64,000 nt of DNA from assembly GCF_000379905.1 (NCBI RefSeq), contig NZ_KB904056.1:15157-79156 (forward strand), read 5' to 3'. A program made the position numbers and the translations under genes. This DNA comes from Rodentibacter pneumotropicus DSM 21403. Its GTDB lineage: Bacteria; Pseudomonadota; Gammaproteobacteria; Enterobacterales; Pasteurellaceae. The notes under the pieces were generated by a model. The model had not been told where the DNA came from and did no database searches. It saw only the letters and a program-made list of their open reading frames with translations. Shown here one piece after another: positions 53,460 through 57,513 of this stretch (its first letter is position 1; every line of letters starts with the position of its first letter).

Positions 53460-53488
53460 TGTAAGAAATGAAAACATTCCTCGTCTAA
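53460..53488 (+). promoter_or_regulatory. ECF-type promoter of msrAB
   Basis: TGTAAGAAAT (53460-53469), 12 nt, then CGTCTAA (53482-53488). The same two boxes with the same spacing precede the Met-rich gene on the minus strand (56754-56726). CGTC-type -10 boxes are typical of ECF sigma factors. The predicted start is about 30 bp before the msrAB ATG. Confidence 0.8.
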
Positions 53489-53524
53489 AGCAATATAACT
53501 TGAATATTGAAAGAGGACTTTATT

Positions 53525-54592
53525 ATGAAATTTTCAAAAACCTTTCTACTTTTAACCGCACTTTGTGCTACAAGCCAATCAATTTTGGCAGTAGAAAAAA
53601 ACATACCAATGCAAAATACGGAGCAAAAAACTATGATTAAACCTCAACAAAATCTACGTGAAATTTATTTGGCCGGCGGTTGTTTTTGGGGAGTGGAGGC
53701 ATACATGGAGCGCATTTATGGCGTGAAAGATGCGGTTTCAGGTTATGCCAACGGCAATACGGATAAAACCAGTTATGCCCTTTTAGGGGTCACCGATCAC
53801 GCCGAAGCCGTAAAAGTGACTTATGATGCAAACCAAATTTCACTTGATAAATTGCTGCAATATTATTTTAAAGTGATCGATCCGACTAGTGTGAATAAAC
53901 AAGGTAATGACAGAGGTCGCCAATATCGCACCGGCATCTACTATCTGGATACCGCAGACAAAACCGAGATCGAGCACGCCATTGCCACACTTCAAACAAA
54001 GTACAAAAGTAAAATTCAAATTGAAGTAGAACCGCTTAAAAACTACACGGAAGCGGAAGAATATCACCAAGATTATTTGAAAAAAAATCCGAATGGCTAT
54101 TGCCACATCGACATTACACAGGCAGACGAACCCATGATTAATGAAAAAGATTACCCAAAACCAAGTGATGAAACACTCAAAGCAAAATTAACGCCGTTGC
54201 AATATTCGGTGACACAAAATAAACACACGGAGCGTTCCTTCAGCAATGAATATTGGGACAACTTTCAACCGGGCATTTATGTTGATGTTACTACTGGTGA
54301 GCCACTGTTTTCATCCAATGATAAATTTGAATCGGGTTGTGGCTGGCCAAGTTTCACCCACCCAATCGCCAAAGAAGTGGTGCATTATCAAACGGACAAC
54401 AGCTTTAATATGCAACGCACAGAAGTGCTGAGCCGCAGTGGTAAGGCACATTTAGGGCATGTTTTTGATGACGGTCCGAAAGATAAAGGCGGTTTGCGCT
54501 ATTGTATCAATAGTGCCTCGATCAAATTTATTCCCTTAGCAGAGATGGAACAAGCCGGATACGGGTATTTAGTAAAAACCATCAAAAAATAA
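53525..54592 (+). CDS. msrAB: Periplasmic methionine sulfoxide reductase MsrAB fusion
   Basis: 355 residues from the ATG at 53525. A signal peptide (about 1-22, ending S-I-L-A) is followed by MsrA with the catalytic G-C-F-W-G (about 55) and MsrB with G-C-G-W-P and catalytic R-Y-C-I-N-S (about 328). The fusion reduces both S- and R-methionine sulfoxide in exported proteins. ccdA and a thioredoxin follow on the same strand and would supply electrons. The promoter boxes match those of the Met-rich gene near the ECF sigma gene, so it is a likely target of that sigma factor. A longer frame from 53507 lacks a ribosome site. Confidence 0.95.
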
Positions 54593-54696
54593 TGTTGGTA
54601 AGCTCTGTGAATGACTCTCAATTCATACATGAAAAATGATTATCAGCGTGTGTGAACTTAGTTTGCACACCTTAAAAAATATAAGGAAATGAAACA

Positions 54697-55338
54697 ATGT
54701 TAGATCAACAACTTCTTATCGGTACAGTATTTTTAGCGGGGATTGCCTCTTTTCTTTCCCCCTGTATTTTTCCGATCATCCCCATTTATTTTGGAATTCT
54801 CAGTAAAGGAGGAAAAAAAGTCCTGAACACCTTTTTATTTATCTTGGGACTTTCGCTTACCTTTGTAAGCCTTGGCTTTAGTTTTGGTTTTCTAGGGAAT
54901 ATTTTGTTCAGTGATACGACTCGTGTGATTGCCGGAGTGATCGTGATTATTCTCGGGATTCATCAACTTGGTATCGTTAAAATCGACTTGCTTGAACGCA
55001 CTAAATTACTGGAAATCAAAACATCGGGAAAATCGACCGCACTTGAAGCGTTCGTGCTTGGCTTAACCTTCAGTCTCGGTTGGACACCTTGTATTGGACC
55101 AATTCTCGCCTCCGTCCTTGCGTTGTCCGGCGATGAGGGATCGGCACTGTACGGTGCAGCGATGATGCTTGTTTATGTCTTTGGCTTAGCGACCCCCTTT
55201 ATGCTGTTCTCACTTTTCTCAGATAGCTTGCTTAAACGGACTAAAAGCTTAAATAACCACTTAAACAAATTCAAAATCGGTGGTGGAATTTTGATTATTG
55301 TGATGGGATGTTTATTAATTACCAATAACTTAGCCTAG
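54697..55338 (+). CDS. ccdA: Cytochrome c biogenesis/thiol-disulfide membrane protein CcdA
   Basis: 213 residues, six membrane helices. The two redox cysteines lie in F-L-S-P-C-I-F-P (helix 1) and G-W-T-P-C-I-G-P (helix 4), the CcdA/DsbD-beta pattern. It carries electrons from cytosolic thioredoxin to periplasmic thiol proteins. It sits between msrAB and a periplasmic thioredoxin, so its probable job is recharging MsrAB. The 104-bp gap from msrAB has an imperfect hairpin (GTGTGTGAAC/GTTTGCACAC) before the ribosome site. Confidence 0.93.
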   Translation: MLDQQLLIGTVFLAGIASFLSPCIFPIIPIYFGILSKGGKKVLNTFLFILGLSLTFVSLGFSFGFLGNILFSDTTRVIAGVIVIILGIHQLGIVKIDLLERTKLLEIKTSGKSTALEAFVLGLTFSLGWTPCIGPILASVLALSGDEGSALYGAAMMLVYVFGLATPFMLFSLFSDSLLKRTKSLNNHLNKFKIGGGILIIVMGCLLITNNLA

Positions 55339-55417
55339 CATTCGCTATGCAGGTTCTTAAACCAAGCCATATCGCAGGTTTTAGAAAACTATCAATGTGG
55401 CTTGGAATTGAATAACT

Positions 55418-55435
55418 CCATACCGTTTGGTATGG
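55418..55435 (+). other. Perfect hairpin before the thioredoxin gene
   Basis: CCATACC-GTTT-GGTATGG lies 22 bp before the ATG of the thioredoxin gene. Upstream, AAGCCATAT and ATGTGGCTT can form a second, larger stem. There is no T run; a role in mRNA processing or attenuation is possible. Confidence 0.55.
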
Positions 55436-55457
55436 CAGAACAAAAAGGAAAAAACAA

Positions 55458-55928
55458 ATGAAAAAATTACTCTCAATCTTATTAATGACATTCAGCCTTC
55501 AGGTTTTCTCGGCGACTAACTTGGCGGATATCCCCCTCAAGGATTTAAACAACCAACCTGTTACCCTTGATAAATACAAAGGCAAACCGGTGTATATCAA
55601 AATGTGGGCATCATGGTGCCCTATCTGTTTGGCTGGTTTAGCGGAAATTGACGATTTAAGCGCCGAGCAACATCAAAATTTTGAAATCATTACACTCGTT
55701 TCGCCTTCTCATAAAGGTGAAAAAGCAACGACAGATTTCATTGAATGGTACAAAGGTTTAGACTACAAAAATATTACTGTATTATTGGATGAAAAAGGGG
55801 AAATCATTGATCGTGCTCGTGTACGCGGTTATCCTTTTAATGTATTTTTAGATACTGATTTAAACATCAAAAAAACCGTGCCGGGGCATTTAAATACAGA
55901 AAAAATTCGCCAATTTGCCGAACAATAA
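55458..55928 (+). CDS. Periplasmic thioredoxin-like (TlpA/ResA type) protein
   Basis: 156 residues. The signal peptide M-K-K-L-L-S-I-L-L-M-T-F-S-L-Q-V-F-S-A is followed by a thioredoxin fold with active site W-C-P-I-C (about 53-57) and the cis-Pro region G-Y-P-F. It probably passes electrons from CcdA to MsrAB. It is the third gene of msrAB-ccdA-trx; the HI1455-1453 order is the same, from memory. Confidence 0.9.
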   Translation: MKKLLSILLMTFSLQVFSATNLADIPLKDLNNQPVTLDKYKGKPVYIKMWASWCPICLAGLAEIDDLSAEQHQNFEIITLVSPSHKGEKATTDFIEWYKGLDYKNITVLLDEKGEIIDRARVRGYPFNVFLDTDLNIKKTVPGHLNTEKIRQFAEQ

Positions 55929-56311
55929 TAAGGCATAAGTGCGGTAAAATTTTTTAAAGTTTATGCGCCCTTCTCACAATGTAATAAATACCTGTTTCTG
56001 AGATCATACAATCAATACAGGTATTTTTTATTTGTAGTAAAAGTGCGTCGGTATGGACGAATTATCAATAAATCCGTGATAGATTTGTTCAAAAATATGA
56101 GCTTTATATTTGTAAAATATGACAATAAAGATACTAGATTGCTGCCAAAGGTTGGAGAGAGATAGTTGTTAGATATCTCTCTTTGTTTAATTATCCTGTG
56201 GATATTTGCAAAAGAATTTATGATTGATTTTGGTGATCGACTAAGCGATCACCATTAAACAGAATAGTTGGTTATACACAGTTTTGGAGATACTCCAAAC
56301 CTTGTTTACTA
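55929..56311. other. Intergenic region with several hairpins, no gene seen
   Basis: No credible gene. It contains a terminator (next entry), an inverted repeat AGAGAGATA/TATCTCTCT (56156-56182) followed by TTGTTT, a perfect 9-bp-stem hairpin TGGTGATCG/CGATCACCA (56231-56254), and TTTGGAG-ATA-CTCCAAA (about 56284-56300), which could terminate the Met-rich gene on the minus strand. One uptake-sequence copy lies at about 55937. Confidence 0.6.
55986..56030 (+). terminator. Terminator after the msrAB-ccdA-thioredoxin operon
   Basis: AAATACCTGT (55986-55995) pairs with ACAGGTATTT (56017-56026), loop 21 nt, followed by Ts. Confidence 0.75.
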
Positions 56312-56662
56312 TTATTTCTTCATATCTCCCTTCATCATACCATCAGATTTCATTTTCATGTCATCTTTCATCATATTGTCAGACTTCATTTTCATACCAT
56401 CTTTCATCATATTGTCAGATTTCATTTTCATGTCGTCCTTCATCATACCCTCAGATTTCATTTTCATGCCATCTTTCATCATATTGTCAGATTTCATTTT
56501 CATGTCGTCTTTCATCATACCCTCAGATTTCATGTGCATGGATTTTTCACAATCCATTTTGTCTTTTGAGCAATCCGTGTGCATGGAAGAAGCATAACCA
56601 CTTGTTGTACCAAATAAAACCGCTATACTGATGATTGTGCTTTTTAATGTGATATTTTTCAT
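56312..56662 (-). CDS. Methionine-rich repeat periplasmic protein (MrpX-like)
   Basis: 116 residues. The signal peptide runs to about residue 24 (S-G-Y-A). A short Cys/His segment follows (M-H-T-D-C, M-D-C, M-H-M), then six tandem 12-residue units such as MKSEGMMKDDMK and MKSDNMMKDGMK (residues 44-115). There are 28 Met in 116 residues, and one third of the repeat region is Met. It is divergent from the ECF sigma gene and shares its promoter motif with msrAB. The best parallel is MrpX of Azospira, a sacrificial hypochlorite scavenger made under ECF control and repaired by a methionine sulfoxide reductase. Copper binding through Met/Cys/His is an alternative. The repeat spans an exact 36-bp DNA period. 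Confidence 0.8.
   Translation of the reverse strand: MKNITLKSTIISIAVLFGTTSGYASSMHTDCSKDKMDCEKSMHMKSEGMMKDDMKMKSDNMMKDGMKMKSEGMMKDDMKMKSDNMMKDGMKMKSDNMMKDDMKMKSDGMMKGDMKK
56318..56533 (-). repeat. Six tandem 36-bp units inside the Met-rich gene
   Basis: 216 bp equal to 6 x 36 bp, in frame (12 codons per unit). Units alternate between E-G and D-N variants, with the third a copy of the first and the fourth of the second, which suggests expansion by 72-bp steps. Confidence 0.9.
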
Positions 56663-56700
56663 TTTTAGTTTCCTTCTGTAAGTGATACATTATTTCTTTG

Positions 56701-56721
56701 AATGGACTTTATTCGTCCATT
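56701..56721 (-). other. Inverted repeat at the predicted 5' end of the Met-rich mRNA
   Basis: AATGGAC (56701-56707) and GTCCATT (56715-56721) form a perfect 7-bp stem with a 7-nt loop, directly after the ECF -10 box. It may stabilise the mRNA or be an operator for a repressor. Confidence 0.6.
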
Positions 56722-56725
56722 GAAG

Positions 56726-56754
56726 TTAGACGAAGAAACTTTTGATTTCTTACA
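56726..56754 (-). promoter_or_regulatory. ECF-type promoter of the Met-rich gene
   Basis: On the minus strand TGTAAGAAAT (56754-56745), 12 nt, then CGTCTAA (56732-56726). The boxes and spacing are identical to those upstream of msrAB. Confidence 0.8.
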
Positions 56755-56775
56755 AAATTTTTTAAAGGAATAACA

Positions 56776-57324
56776 ATGCCTAATCAAATTTCTGAAAAGG
56801 AATTACATACTATTCGGCAACAGATGTTGAAATTTGCCGAATTACAATTACACAACCATGAGCTTGCAGAAGATCTCGTGCAAGAATCCTTTTTAAGTGC
56901 ATTTAAAAATATCGATCATTTTAAACGTGAGGCCGCATTTAAAACTTGGATGTTTGCCATTCTAAAAAATAAAATTATTGATTACTTGCGTCAAAAAGGA
57001 CGGATTGTTTTAGAAAGTGAAATAGACGAAGAAGATTCGCCGAATACATTTTTTGATGAAGCCGGCCACTGGAATTTGGCATGTACACCGAGTAATTTAA
57101 AAGAACATGAAGAAAAAGTTTATTCTGAAGAATTTTGGCTAATTTTTGAAACCTGCCTGACTTGTCTGCCGGCTCAGCAAGCACGAATTTTTATGATGCG
57201 TGAATTTTTAGAACTATCATCGGGTGAAATTTGTCAAGAAACACAATTAAGCACGTCTAATTTACATACCACACTTTATCGTGCCCGCTTACAACTGCAA
57301 CATTGTCTTTCTCGGAAATTATAA
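56776..57324 (+). CDS. ECF-type RNA polymerase sigma factor
   Basis: 182 residues. Region 2 has A-E-D-L-V-Q-E-S-F-L and F-K-T-W-M-F-A-I-L-K-N-K-I-I-D-Y-L-R (about 30-75); region 4 has L-P-A-Q-Q-A-R-I-F and a helix-turn-helix ending T-L-Y-R-A-R-L-Q-L. Region 3 is missing, as in all ECF factors. The ribosome site is AAAGGAA. A small zinc-type anti-sigma candidate follows after 9 bp. It probably drives the two matching promoters at msrAB and the Met-rich gene; the H. influenzae homologue (RpoE2, HI1459) controls an msrAB operon, from memory. Confidence 0.92.
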   Translation: MPNQISEKELHTIRQQMLKFAELQLHNHELAEDLVQESFLSAFKNIDHFKREAAFKTWMFAILKNKIIDYLRQKGRIVLESEIDEEDSPNTFFDEAGHWNLACTPSNLKEHEEKVYSEEFWLIFETCLTCLPAQQARIFMMREFLELSSGEICQETQLSTSNLHTTLYRARLQLQHCLSRKL

Positions 57325-57333
57325 GGAGCCTCT

Positions 57334-57513
57334 ATGCATTGCCGTCAAGCTACAAGAATCATCTCAGACTCCCATGAACGCCCGTTAACTTTACAAGAAA
57401 AGGTCGGTTTACGTCTTCATTTAGTGACCTGCCCTCATTGCCGTAATTTTAAGCAAAATTGTGGCAAGCTAAGTCAATTAATGAAAGAATTTGCAAAAAA
57501 TTCAAAAAAATAA
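57334..57513 (+). CDS. Small zinc-binding anti-sigma factor candidate
   Basis: 59 residues, start M-H-C-R-Q-A-T-R. The ZAS/zf-HC2 motif H-x3-C-x2-C is present as H-L-V-T-C-P-H-C, with a further Cys at N-C-G-K and an N-terminal H-C. There is no membrane helix, so it would be cytosolic and could sense oxidation of its cysteines directly. It follows the ECF sigma gene by 9 bp with an AAGGAG ribosome site, the usual place for its antagonist. A hairpin (GCGGAAG/CTTCCGC, about 57518-57538) follows. Confidence 0.78.
   Translation: MHCRQATRIISDSHERPLTLQEKVGLRLHLVTCPHCRNFKQNCGKLSQLMKEFAKNSKK

What the first reader, a model, noticed from the sequence alone, without database searches (positions are those of the whole stretch)
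53460..57513. One-locus periplasmic methionine-sink and repair system under an ECF sigma factor
Within 4 kb lie a secreted MsrAB fusion, CcdA, a periplasmic thioredoxin, a secreted protein that is one third Met in its repeat region, an ECF sigma factor and a small Cys/His-rich anti-sigma candidate. The parts make one circuit: oxidant hits the zinc anti-sigma, sigma is freed, a sacrificial Met polymer and its reductase are made, and electrons arrive through CcdA and thioredoxin. It parallels the Azospira SigF/MrpX/MsrP hypochlorite system and H. influenzae RpoE2-MsrAB, but here the Met-rich protein is paired with an MsrAB fusion and a soluble zinc anti-sigma.
Basis: partly seen in the sequence, partly recalled or inferred. 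Interest (0 to 1): 0.85.

Follow-up and report, generated by a model that had tools for sequence, protein, structure and literature searches.

The report
Methionine-rich shield under oxidant-sensing sigma factor
A rodent bacterium carries the known Haemophilus-type switch that turns on repair of oxidant-damaged surface proteins, and that switch very probably also turns on a secreted protein made largely of methionine, perhaps a renewable shield against bleach-like oxidants.

Summary
All six parts are present where stated. Sigma factor, soluble zinc (ZAS) anti-sigma and msrAB-ccdA-trx are the Rodentibacter form of the characterised H. influenzae RpoE2-HrsE-MsrAB system, so the MsrAB fusion and soluble anti-sigma are not differences from it. 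The new part is the divergent gene for a secreted protein, 29% Met when mature.

It is very probably a direct sigma target: TGTAAG-N16-CGTCTAA occurs exactly twice in the 2.26-Mb genome, before msrAB and before the Met-rich gene, and 45 of 46 Met-rich genes beside this sigma carry it with at most one mismatch. Of 112 sigma copies, 35 lie near msrAB and 32 near the unrelated msrP, none near both. Met-rich genes accompany either reductase and stand directly ahead of one in 13 genomes, which points to methionine oxidation as the shared theme.

Recycling by MsrAB is inferred. Copper binding is a real rival: the same regulon holds the copper-binding oxazolin operon, found mostly where the Met-rich gene is absent (not significant once relatedness is allowed for). 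H. influenzae-like genomes show no Met-rich ORF. New variant of a known kind.

The parts
53460..53488 (+). ECF-type promoter TGTAAG-N16-CGTCTAA before msrAB
   Evidence: Exact match, one of two in the genome; coordinates
53525..54592 (+). msrAB: secreted methionine sulfoxide reductase fusion
   Evidence: PF01625, PF01641, NF010625
54697..55338 (+). ccdA: membrane thiol electron carrier
   Evidence: PF02683, PF13386
55458..55928 (+). trx: thioredoxin-like protein with leader
   Evidence: Redoxin, AhpC-TSA; WCPIC in the translation
56312..56662 (-). Secreted Met-rich repeat protein, 116 aa
   Evidence: Composition and repeat; relatives beside the same sigma
56331..56540 (-). 36-bp tandem repeat coding 12-residue units with four Met each
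   Evidence: the four Met codons are invariant in the 5 whole units examined
56701..56721 (-). Stem-loop AATGGAC..GTCCATT near the predicted 5' end of the Met-rich mRNA
   Evidence: Coordinates; folding z -3.17; stem 7 bp, shuffle p 0.01
56726..56754 (-). ECF-type promoter TGTAAG-N16-CGTCTAA before the Met-rich gene
   Evidence: Exact match, the second of two in the genome; coordinates
56776..57324 (+). ECF sigma factor, RpoE2 type
   Evidence: NF009182, TIGR02943, Sigma70_r2, Sigma70_r4_2
57334..57513 (+). Soluble ZAS-motif anti-sigma, HrsE type, 59 aa
   Evidence: NF052368, zf-HC2; ZAS pattern downstream of the sigma in 110 of 110 neighbourhoods

Best explanation
This is the Rodentibacter form of the RpoE2-HrsE envelope-oxidant regulon. 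An oxidant, most likely HOCl, releases the ECF sigma from its small zinc anti-sigma. The sigma fires two matched promoters, giving MsrAB with its thiol supply (CcdA, thioredoxin) and, divergently, a secreted Met-rich repeat protein. That protein is a stoichiometric periplasmic shield: its dense methionines take up oxidant as sulfoxide and the co-induced reductase regenerates them. A stem-loop at the predicted 5' end of its mRNA would suit high abundance. Shown here: gene content, promoters, conservation of the pairing. Taken from H. influenzae work: anti-sigma function, RpoE2-dependent HOCl induction of msrAB. Inferred: the shield role, recycling by MsrAB, sensing at the zinc site.
For: Two exact promoters in the whole genome, before msrAB and the Met-rich gene. 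45 of 46 Met-rich genes beside the sigma carry the motif with at most one mismatch. 40 of 128 exact hits in 140 genomes lie before an MsrAB fusion gene, including genomes where msrAB is far from the sigma. The Met-rich gene stands directly ahead of msrAB in 8 genomes and of msrP in 5, i.e. ahead of two unrelated MetSO reductases. The repeat sequence differs widely between lineages while Met richness and a leader are kept. A stem of at least 6 bp in 36 of 37 Met-rich leaders, 8 of 17 msrAB leaders, 13 of 33 others. In H. influenzae HOCl induces msrAB in an RpoE2-dependent way (PMC7907618 section 28). A Met-rich peptide with MsrPQ contributes to HOCl resistance in Brucella (PMC8315932 passages).
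Against: No expression or chemistry data for this protein. G069 (191-aa Met-rich protein) and G080 have a Met-rich gene but neither an MsrAB fusion nor MsrP. Many genomes have sigma and reductase without a Met-rich gene: 15 of 33 copies near msrAB and 27 of 32 near msrP. Allowing for relatedness, Met-rich presence is not tied to reductase type. Met clusters could bind Cu(I), and the regulon contains a copper-binding peptide operon. The motif does not explain the RpoE2-activated dmt promoter, and the CGACTAA variant was admitted after I had seen other genera. H. influenzae without rpoE2 had wild-type oxidant resistance in vitro.
Confidence: 0.6

Rival explanations
1. The Met-rich protein is a periplasmic Cu(I) buffer. 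Its Met clusters, with Cys or His in some lineages, hold copper that acts together with oxidants; it is the counterpart of the oxazolin metallophore controlled by the same kind of sigma.
For: The oxazolin (hvf) operon has a TGTAAG-N16-CGACTA promoter in H. influenzae-like genomes and is RpoE2-dependent in H. influenzae (PMC7907618 section 29); its product binds copper (PMC13419390 and PMC12452194 passages). Met-rich and MNIO genes co-occur less than expected in 104 genomes (6 both, 38 Met-rich only, 31 MNIO only, 29 neither; Fisher p 6.6e-5). The operon lies where the Met-rich gene should be in four genomes. One relative (L115) has 15 His and 41 Met in 137 residues; the window protein has a Cys pair.
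Against: Allowing for relatedness the exclusion is not significant (median p 0.5). The most consistent partners are MetSO reductases. Six genomes keep both. Many Met-rich relatives have no Cys and few His.
Confidence: 0.25
2. A one-way sacrificial sink: it absorbs oxidant and is discarded, and MsrAB repairs other proteins only.
For: G069 has the longest Met-rich protein (191 aa, 27% Met) with neither an MsrAB fusion nor MsrP. H. influenzae MsrAB has documented other substrates (PMC9404787 passages).
Against: The Met-rich gene stands directly ahead of a reductase gene in 13 genomes and shares its promoter type with msrAB.
Confidence: 0.1
3. A drifting repeat ORF of little function kept by chance beside the sigma.
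For: The number of repeat units differs greatly between close relatives; lineages have lost or split the gene.
Against: Promoter kept in 45 of 46 and leader stem in 36 of 37 while the repeat sequence changes; Met positions invariant in the window's whole units.
Confidence: 0.03

Closest known systems
Haemophilus influenzae RpoE2-HrsE with msrAB-ccdA-trx (PMC7907618, PMC9404787)
   Same: ECF sigma with a small soluble ZAS anti-sigma; secreted MsrAB fusion; CcdA and extracellular thioredoxin in the msrAB operon.
   Different: The papers' passages and sections that I read describe no Met-rich protein, and the H. influenzae-like genomes surveyed have no such ORF (G058, G062-G065) except G060, which has a 72-aa one with a degraded promoter. 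They have a dmt gene and the oxazolin operon instead.
Azospira SigF / MrpX / YedYZ (MsrPQ) and Brucella BcrS-AbcS / BcrXQP (PMC8315932 passages; Melnyk 2015 not held, known through citing papers)
   Same: ECF sigma controls a secreted Met-rich peptide together with a periplasmic MetSO reductase; HOCl response.
   Different: There: an ECF16 (SigF-like) sigma, a six-helix membrane anti-sigma and the molybdenum reductase MsrPQ. Here: an RpoE2-type sigma, a soluble ZAS anti-sigma and MsrAB. Five relatives combine this sigma and a Met-rich gene with MsrP.
Oxazolin / hvf operon of H. influenzae (HvfA, MNIO, DUF2063, DoxX; PMC13419390 passages)
   Same: Secreted small repeat peptide under the same type of sigma.
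   Different: EGKCG repeats modified by an MNIO enzyme to bind copper; the window genome has no MNIO and the window protein no such repeat.
Bacillus cereus exoprotein methionines recycled by MsrAB (PMC5526929, abstract and outline)
   Same: Protein methionine plus MsrAB as an antioxidant cycle.
   Different: Cytoplasmic MsrAB and ordinary exoproteins; the abstract describes no dedicated Met polymer.

Membership tests
RpoE2-HrsE-MsrAB system | ECF sigma of this subfamily | tested here: met
   NF009182 308.3 bits over cut-off 264; clusters with Haemophilus sigmas on the tree
RpoE2-HrsE-MsrAB system | Small soluble anti-sigma with ZAS motif next to the sigma | tested here: met
   NF052368 over cut-off, no transmembrane stretch evident in 59 aa; pattern in 110 of 110 neighbourhoods
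RpoE2-HrsE-MsrAB system | msrAB-ccdA-trx operon with sigma-type promoter | tested here: met
RpoE2-HrsE-MsrAB system | Induction by HOCl through the sigma | not testable with these tools
   Published for H. influenzae only
MrpX / BcrX Met-rich HOCl sink | Secreted, Met-rich repeat protein | tested here: met
   29% Met, Sec-like leader judged by eye
MrpX / BcrX Met-rich HOCl sink | MsrPQ partner | tested here: not met
   No MsrP in the window genome; MsrP partner in 5 relatives
MrpX / BcrX Met-rich HOCl sink | SigF-like (ECF16) sigma with membrane anti-sigma | tested here: not met
   RpoE2-type sigma and 59-aa ZAS anti-sigma
MXKDX repeat family TIGR02953 | Score over the family cut-off of 41 bits | tested here: not met
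   No window hit up to E 1 or E 10; relatives L129 18.8 and L134 37.0 bits, both under the cut-off
MrpX / BcrX Met-rich HOCl sink | Oxidised by HOCl and regenerated by the paired reductase | not testable with these tools
   Needs biochemistry
HvfA oxazolin | EGKCG repeats and an MNIO enzyme | tested here: not met
   No EGKCG in the protein; no PF05114 match in the genome

The most novel reading that the evidence does not exclude
The RpoE2-type regulon of Pasteurellaceae is built of exchangeable modules: one sigma with a zinc anti-sigma; one of two unrelated MetSO reductases (thiol-driven MsrAB or quinone-driven MsrPQ); and one of two secreted sulfur polymers (the Met-rich repeat protein or the Cys-derived oxazolin). 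The two polymers would be partly equivalent periplasmic buffers for oxidant and Cu(I) that replace one another in evolution, with H. influenzae a lineage that kept oxazolin and lost the methionine polymer.
Probability: 0.3. Interest if true: 0.75.

Novelty: new variant of a known kind. Interest (0 to 1): 0.58.

Why it matters
A dedicated methionine polymer has been proposed as an HOCl sink in Azospira and Brucella, with MsrPQ in the passages I read. The same kind of protein wired to a different sigma and anti-sigma, and to either of two chemically unrelated reductases, suggests that methionine oxidation itself is what is being managed, and makes the recycling idea testable: one protein type, two reductases. 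It also suggests that H. influenzae, where RpoE2 was studied, lacks a component its relatives have, and it links methionine repair with a copper-binding peptide under one type of switch.

Tried and rejected
MXKDX family (TIGR02953) as a name for the Met-rich protein: no window match, so not filed there.

Autoregulation of the sigma: the best upstream match in the window has 3 mismatches, shuffle p 0.20; five H. influenzae-like genomes give 3 or 4 mismatches, p 0.20-0.87. Rejected for this motif.

Motif against the published RpoE2-activated dmt promoter: best match 5 mismatches in each of 5 genomes. The motif therefore does not explain every reported target.

Link of Met-rich with MsrAB rather than MsrP: independent-pairs test, 3 usable pairs, no significance.

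Met-rich protein as a derivative of HvfA: an HMM of HvfA leaders puts 7 of 8 Met-rich leaders of genus g5 above all 1379 decoy N-termini and the eighth below one, but the window's protein has 34 decoys above it. Kept as a hint for g5 only.

Stem-loop covariation: a plain alignment did not align the stems, so no pair counting was done. I used folding z-scores and longest stem against shuffles (p<0.05 in 21 of 37 Met-rich, 3 of 17 msrAB, 2 of 33 other and 0 of 2 msrP leaders). The Fisher tests ignore relatedness, and the 'other' class includes chance motif matches.

Second sigma pair of the window genome (L080): no msr hit, Met-rich ORF or promoter motif in the 9.6 kb around it; role not resolved.
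Full report
What is there. The window lies in a 2,257,166-base genome whose sigma is 95% identical to that of Rodentibacter ratti and 93% to R. mrazii. Between 53460 and 57513 lie an ECF-type promoter, msrAB, ccdA and trx on the plus strand, a Met-rich ORF on the minus strand, and sigma plus anti-sigma on the plus strand. The Met-rich product has a Sec-like leader (by eye) and then 92 residues of which 27 are Met; its 12-residue unit keeps Met at four positions in the five whole units examined.

Regulation. TGTAAG-N16-CGTCTAA stands 36 bases before the msrAB start codon (53460-53488) and 63 bases before the Met-rich start codon on the other strand (56726-56754). These are the only exact copies in the genome; with up to two mismatches there are 43 hits against 61 for the reversed control, so weaker matches carry no information. 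Across 140 genomes of the family there are 128 exact hits with a spacer of 15-17: 40 before an MsrAB fusion gene, 8 before msrP, 26 reading away from the sigma gene close to it, 8 upstream of the sigma in its own direction, 46 unassigned. The reversed control totals 42 by my addition of the table, so the unassigned hits are near chance in number.

Met-rich genes. By a composition rule (Met above 12.5%, at least 9 Met, within 800 bases of the sigma) 46 of 110 sigma neighbourhoods have one, window included; 2 of the 46 are the leading piece of a split gene. The 110 leave out the second copy of two tandem pairs among the 112 copies found in 104 of 140 genomes. Forty-five of the 46 have the promoter with at most one mismatch, with CGACTAA allowed, a variant I admitted after seeing other genera. 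The exception is G060. In five H. influenzae-like genomes (G058, G062-G065; so called for the published dmt-containing layout, no call names them) the first codons look recognisable but no Met-rich ORF follows and no promoter was matched there. That may be why the H. influenzae papers do not mention such a gene.

Two reductases, one sigma. In the same 140 genomes MsrAB fusions are in 69, MsrP in 55, both in 5. One search reports 104 genomes with a match; I dropped those with only a single-domain hit but kept G012, whose msrAB is in pieces. Of 112 sigma copies 35 have msrAB within 8 kb, 32 have msrP, none both. Met-rich genes lie beside 39 sigma copies from MsrAB genomes, 5 with msrP adjacent and 2 from genomes with neither. 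In eight genomes (G011, G012, G034, G043, G100, G101, G102, G115) the order is Met-rich, msrAB, ccdA, trx, divergent from the sigma; in five (G040, G045, G046, G116, G117) Met-rich then msrP, followed in G117 by an MsrQ-like ferric-reductase-domain gene. In eight genomes of genus g5 the Met-rich gene lies upstream of the sigma in the same direction. On the sigma tree the reductase label needs at least 4 changes and Met-rich presence 15. I read this as one function, coping with methionine oxidation, served by exchangeable enzymes. Against it, the relatedness-aware test of Met-rich against reductase type is uninformative, and 27 of 32 copies near msrP have no Met-rich gene.

Other members. I fetched 20 of the 46 unassigned hits. 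Eight precede a DUF417 membrane protein, three of them with one small ORF between (two of the eight checked by HMM; E. coli RclC of the HOCl-specific rcl operon is, from memory, of this family). Four precede a DoxX gene with an EGKCG peptide behind it, two a thioredoxin-CcdA pair, three a phosphatidylethanolamine-binding-like protein, and three nothing evident. The EGKCG operon is the oxazolin (hvf) operon, RpoE2-dependent and HOCl-induced in H. influenzae (PMC7907618 section 29) and making a copper-binding peptide (PMC13419390 passages). In the five H. influenzae-like genomes it has a TGTAAG-N16-CGACTA promoter, which supports the motif; the published RpoE2-activated dmt promoter does not show it.

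The copper question. MNIO enzymes occur in 37 of 140 genomes and not in the window's. In 104 sigma-bearing genomes Met-rich and MNIO occur together in 6, Met-rich alone in 38, MNIO alone in 31, neither in 29 (Fisher p 6.6e-5; within 58 MsrAB genomes p 0.0025). Allowing for relatedness the informative pairs go one way but are too few (median p 0.5). In G072, G073, G074 and G078 the oxazolin operon lies between the sigma and the genes beyond, where the Met-rich gene should be. Met-rich pieces are seen on both sides of it in G072 and G074 and on one side in G073 and G078; I read the inserted genes in full only for G072. So this regulon carries a Met polymer or a Cys-derived copper binder, more often one than both. 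I give a copper role 0.25.

mRNA leader. Just after the predicted start of the Met-rich mRNA is a stem-loop whose arms differ between genera. Folding z-scores have median -2.8 for 25 Met-rich leaders and +0.25 for 10 msrAB leaders; a stem of at least 6 bp is found in 36 of 37 Met-rich, 8 of 17 msrAB, 13 of 33 other and 0 of 2 msrP leaders. Stem-loops at the 5' end are known to stabilise mRNAs (general knowledge). I infer selection for high abundance, which fits a protein consumed in stoichiometric amounts.

How it most likely works. Oxidant frees the sigma from the zinc anti-sigma (inhibition by the anti-sigma and RpoE2-dependent HOCl induction of msrAB are shown in H. influenzae; the zinc step is inferred). 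MsrAB, CcdA and thioredoxin are made, and the Met-rich protein is exported to absorb oxidant as methionine sulfoxide and be regenerated by MsrAB (inferred). Against a simple picture, H. influenzae without rpoE2 kept wild-type oxidant resistance in vitro, though it survived less well in mice (PMC7907618 abstract).

What is known. Searches of the held library listed no paper that I recognised as describing a Met-rich protein in the RpoE2-HrsE-MsrAB system, and none pairing Rodentibacter with sigma factors. I saw listings, abstracts, passages and named sections, no paper in full, and most subscription papers are not held. The H. influenzae paper has no 'methionine-rich' in its main text; its follow-up uses the word for model substrates and in a reference title. 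The sigma and MsrAB half is therefore known, the Met-polymer idea is known from Azospira and Brucella, and their combination with this sigma, this anti-sigma and MsrAB is a new variant.

Noticed in passing
L080:6003-6742 (G000:C16): The window's genome has a second sigma of the same kind (64% identical) with its own ZAS anti-sigma, with no msr, Met-rich or MNIO gene found beside it.
   Followed up: partly
L080:6820-9591 (-): A 923-aa ORF with repeated AENAESDYAEIPAVVGNK-like units lies just downstream of that second pair; not identified.
   Followed up: no
L091, L092 (G061, G067): Two tandem copies of the sigma/anti-sigma pair about 4 kb apart ahead of msrAB.
   Followed up: no
L098, L099, L100, L103 (G074, G072, G073, G078): The DoxX-oxazolin-MNIO operon lies where the Met-rich gene should be; pieces of that gene remain on one or both sides.
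   Followed up: partly
L243 (G104), HvfA-like ORF: An oxazolin-type peptide whose EGKCG repeats are linked by Met-rich stretches (ADMMKSSMKSAEGKCG), looking like a mixture of the two peptide types.
   Followed up: no
L148-L161 (genus g5 genomes): Met-rich leaders of g5 resemble HvfA leaders (7 of 8 above all 1379 decoys), unlike the window's protein.
   Followed up: partly
L128 (G012): msrAB behind an intact Met-rich ORF is in pieces, with a stop inside.
   Followed up: no
L085 (G069), Met-rich ORF: The longest Met-rich protein (191 aa, 27% Met) sits in a genome with neither an MsrAB fusion nor MsrP found.
   Followed up: partly
L189-L191, L194-L196, L198, L200: The sigma-type promoter stands before DUF417 membrane protein genes, directly or with one small ORF between, in other genera.
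   Followed up: partly
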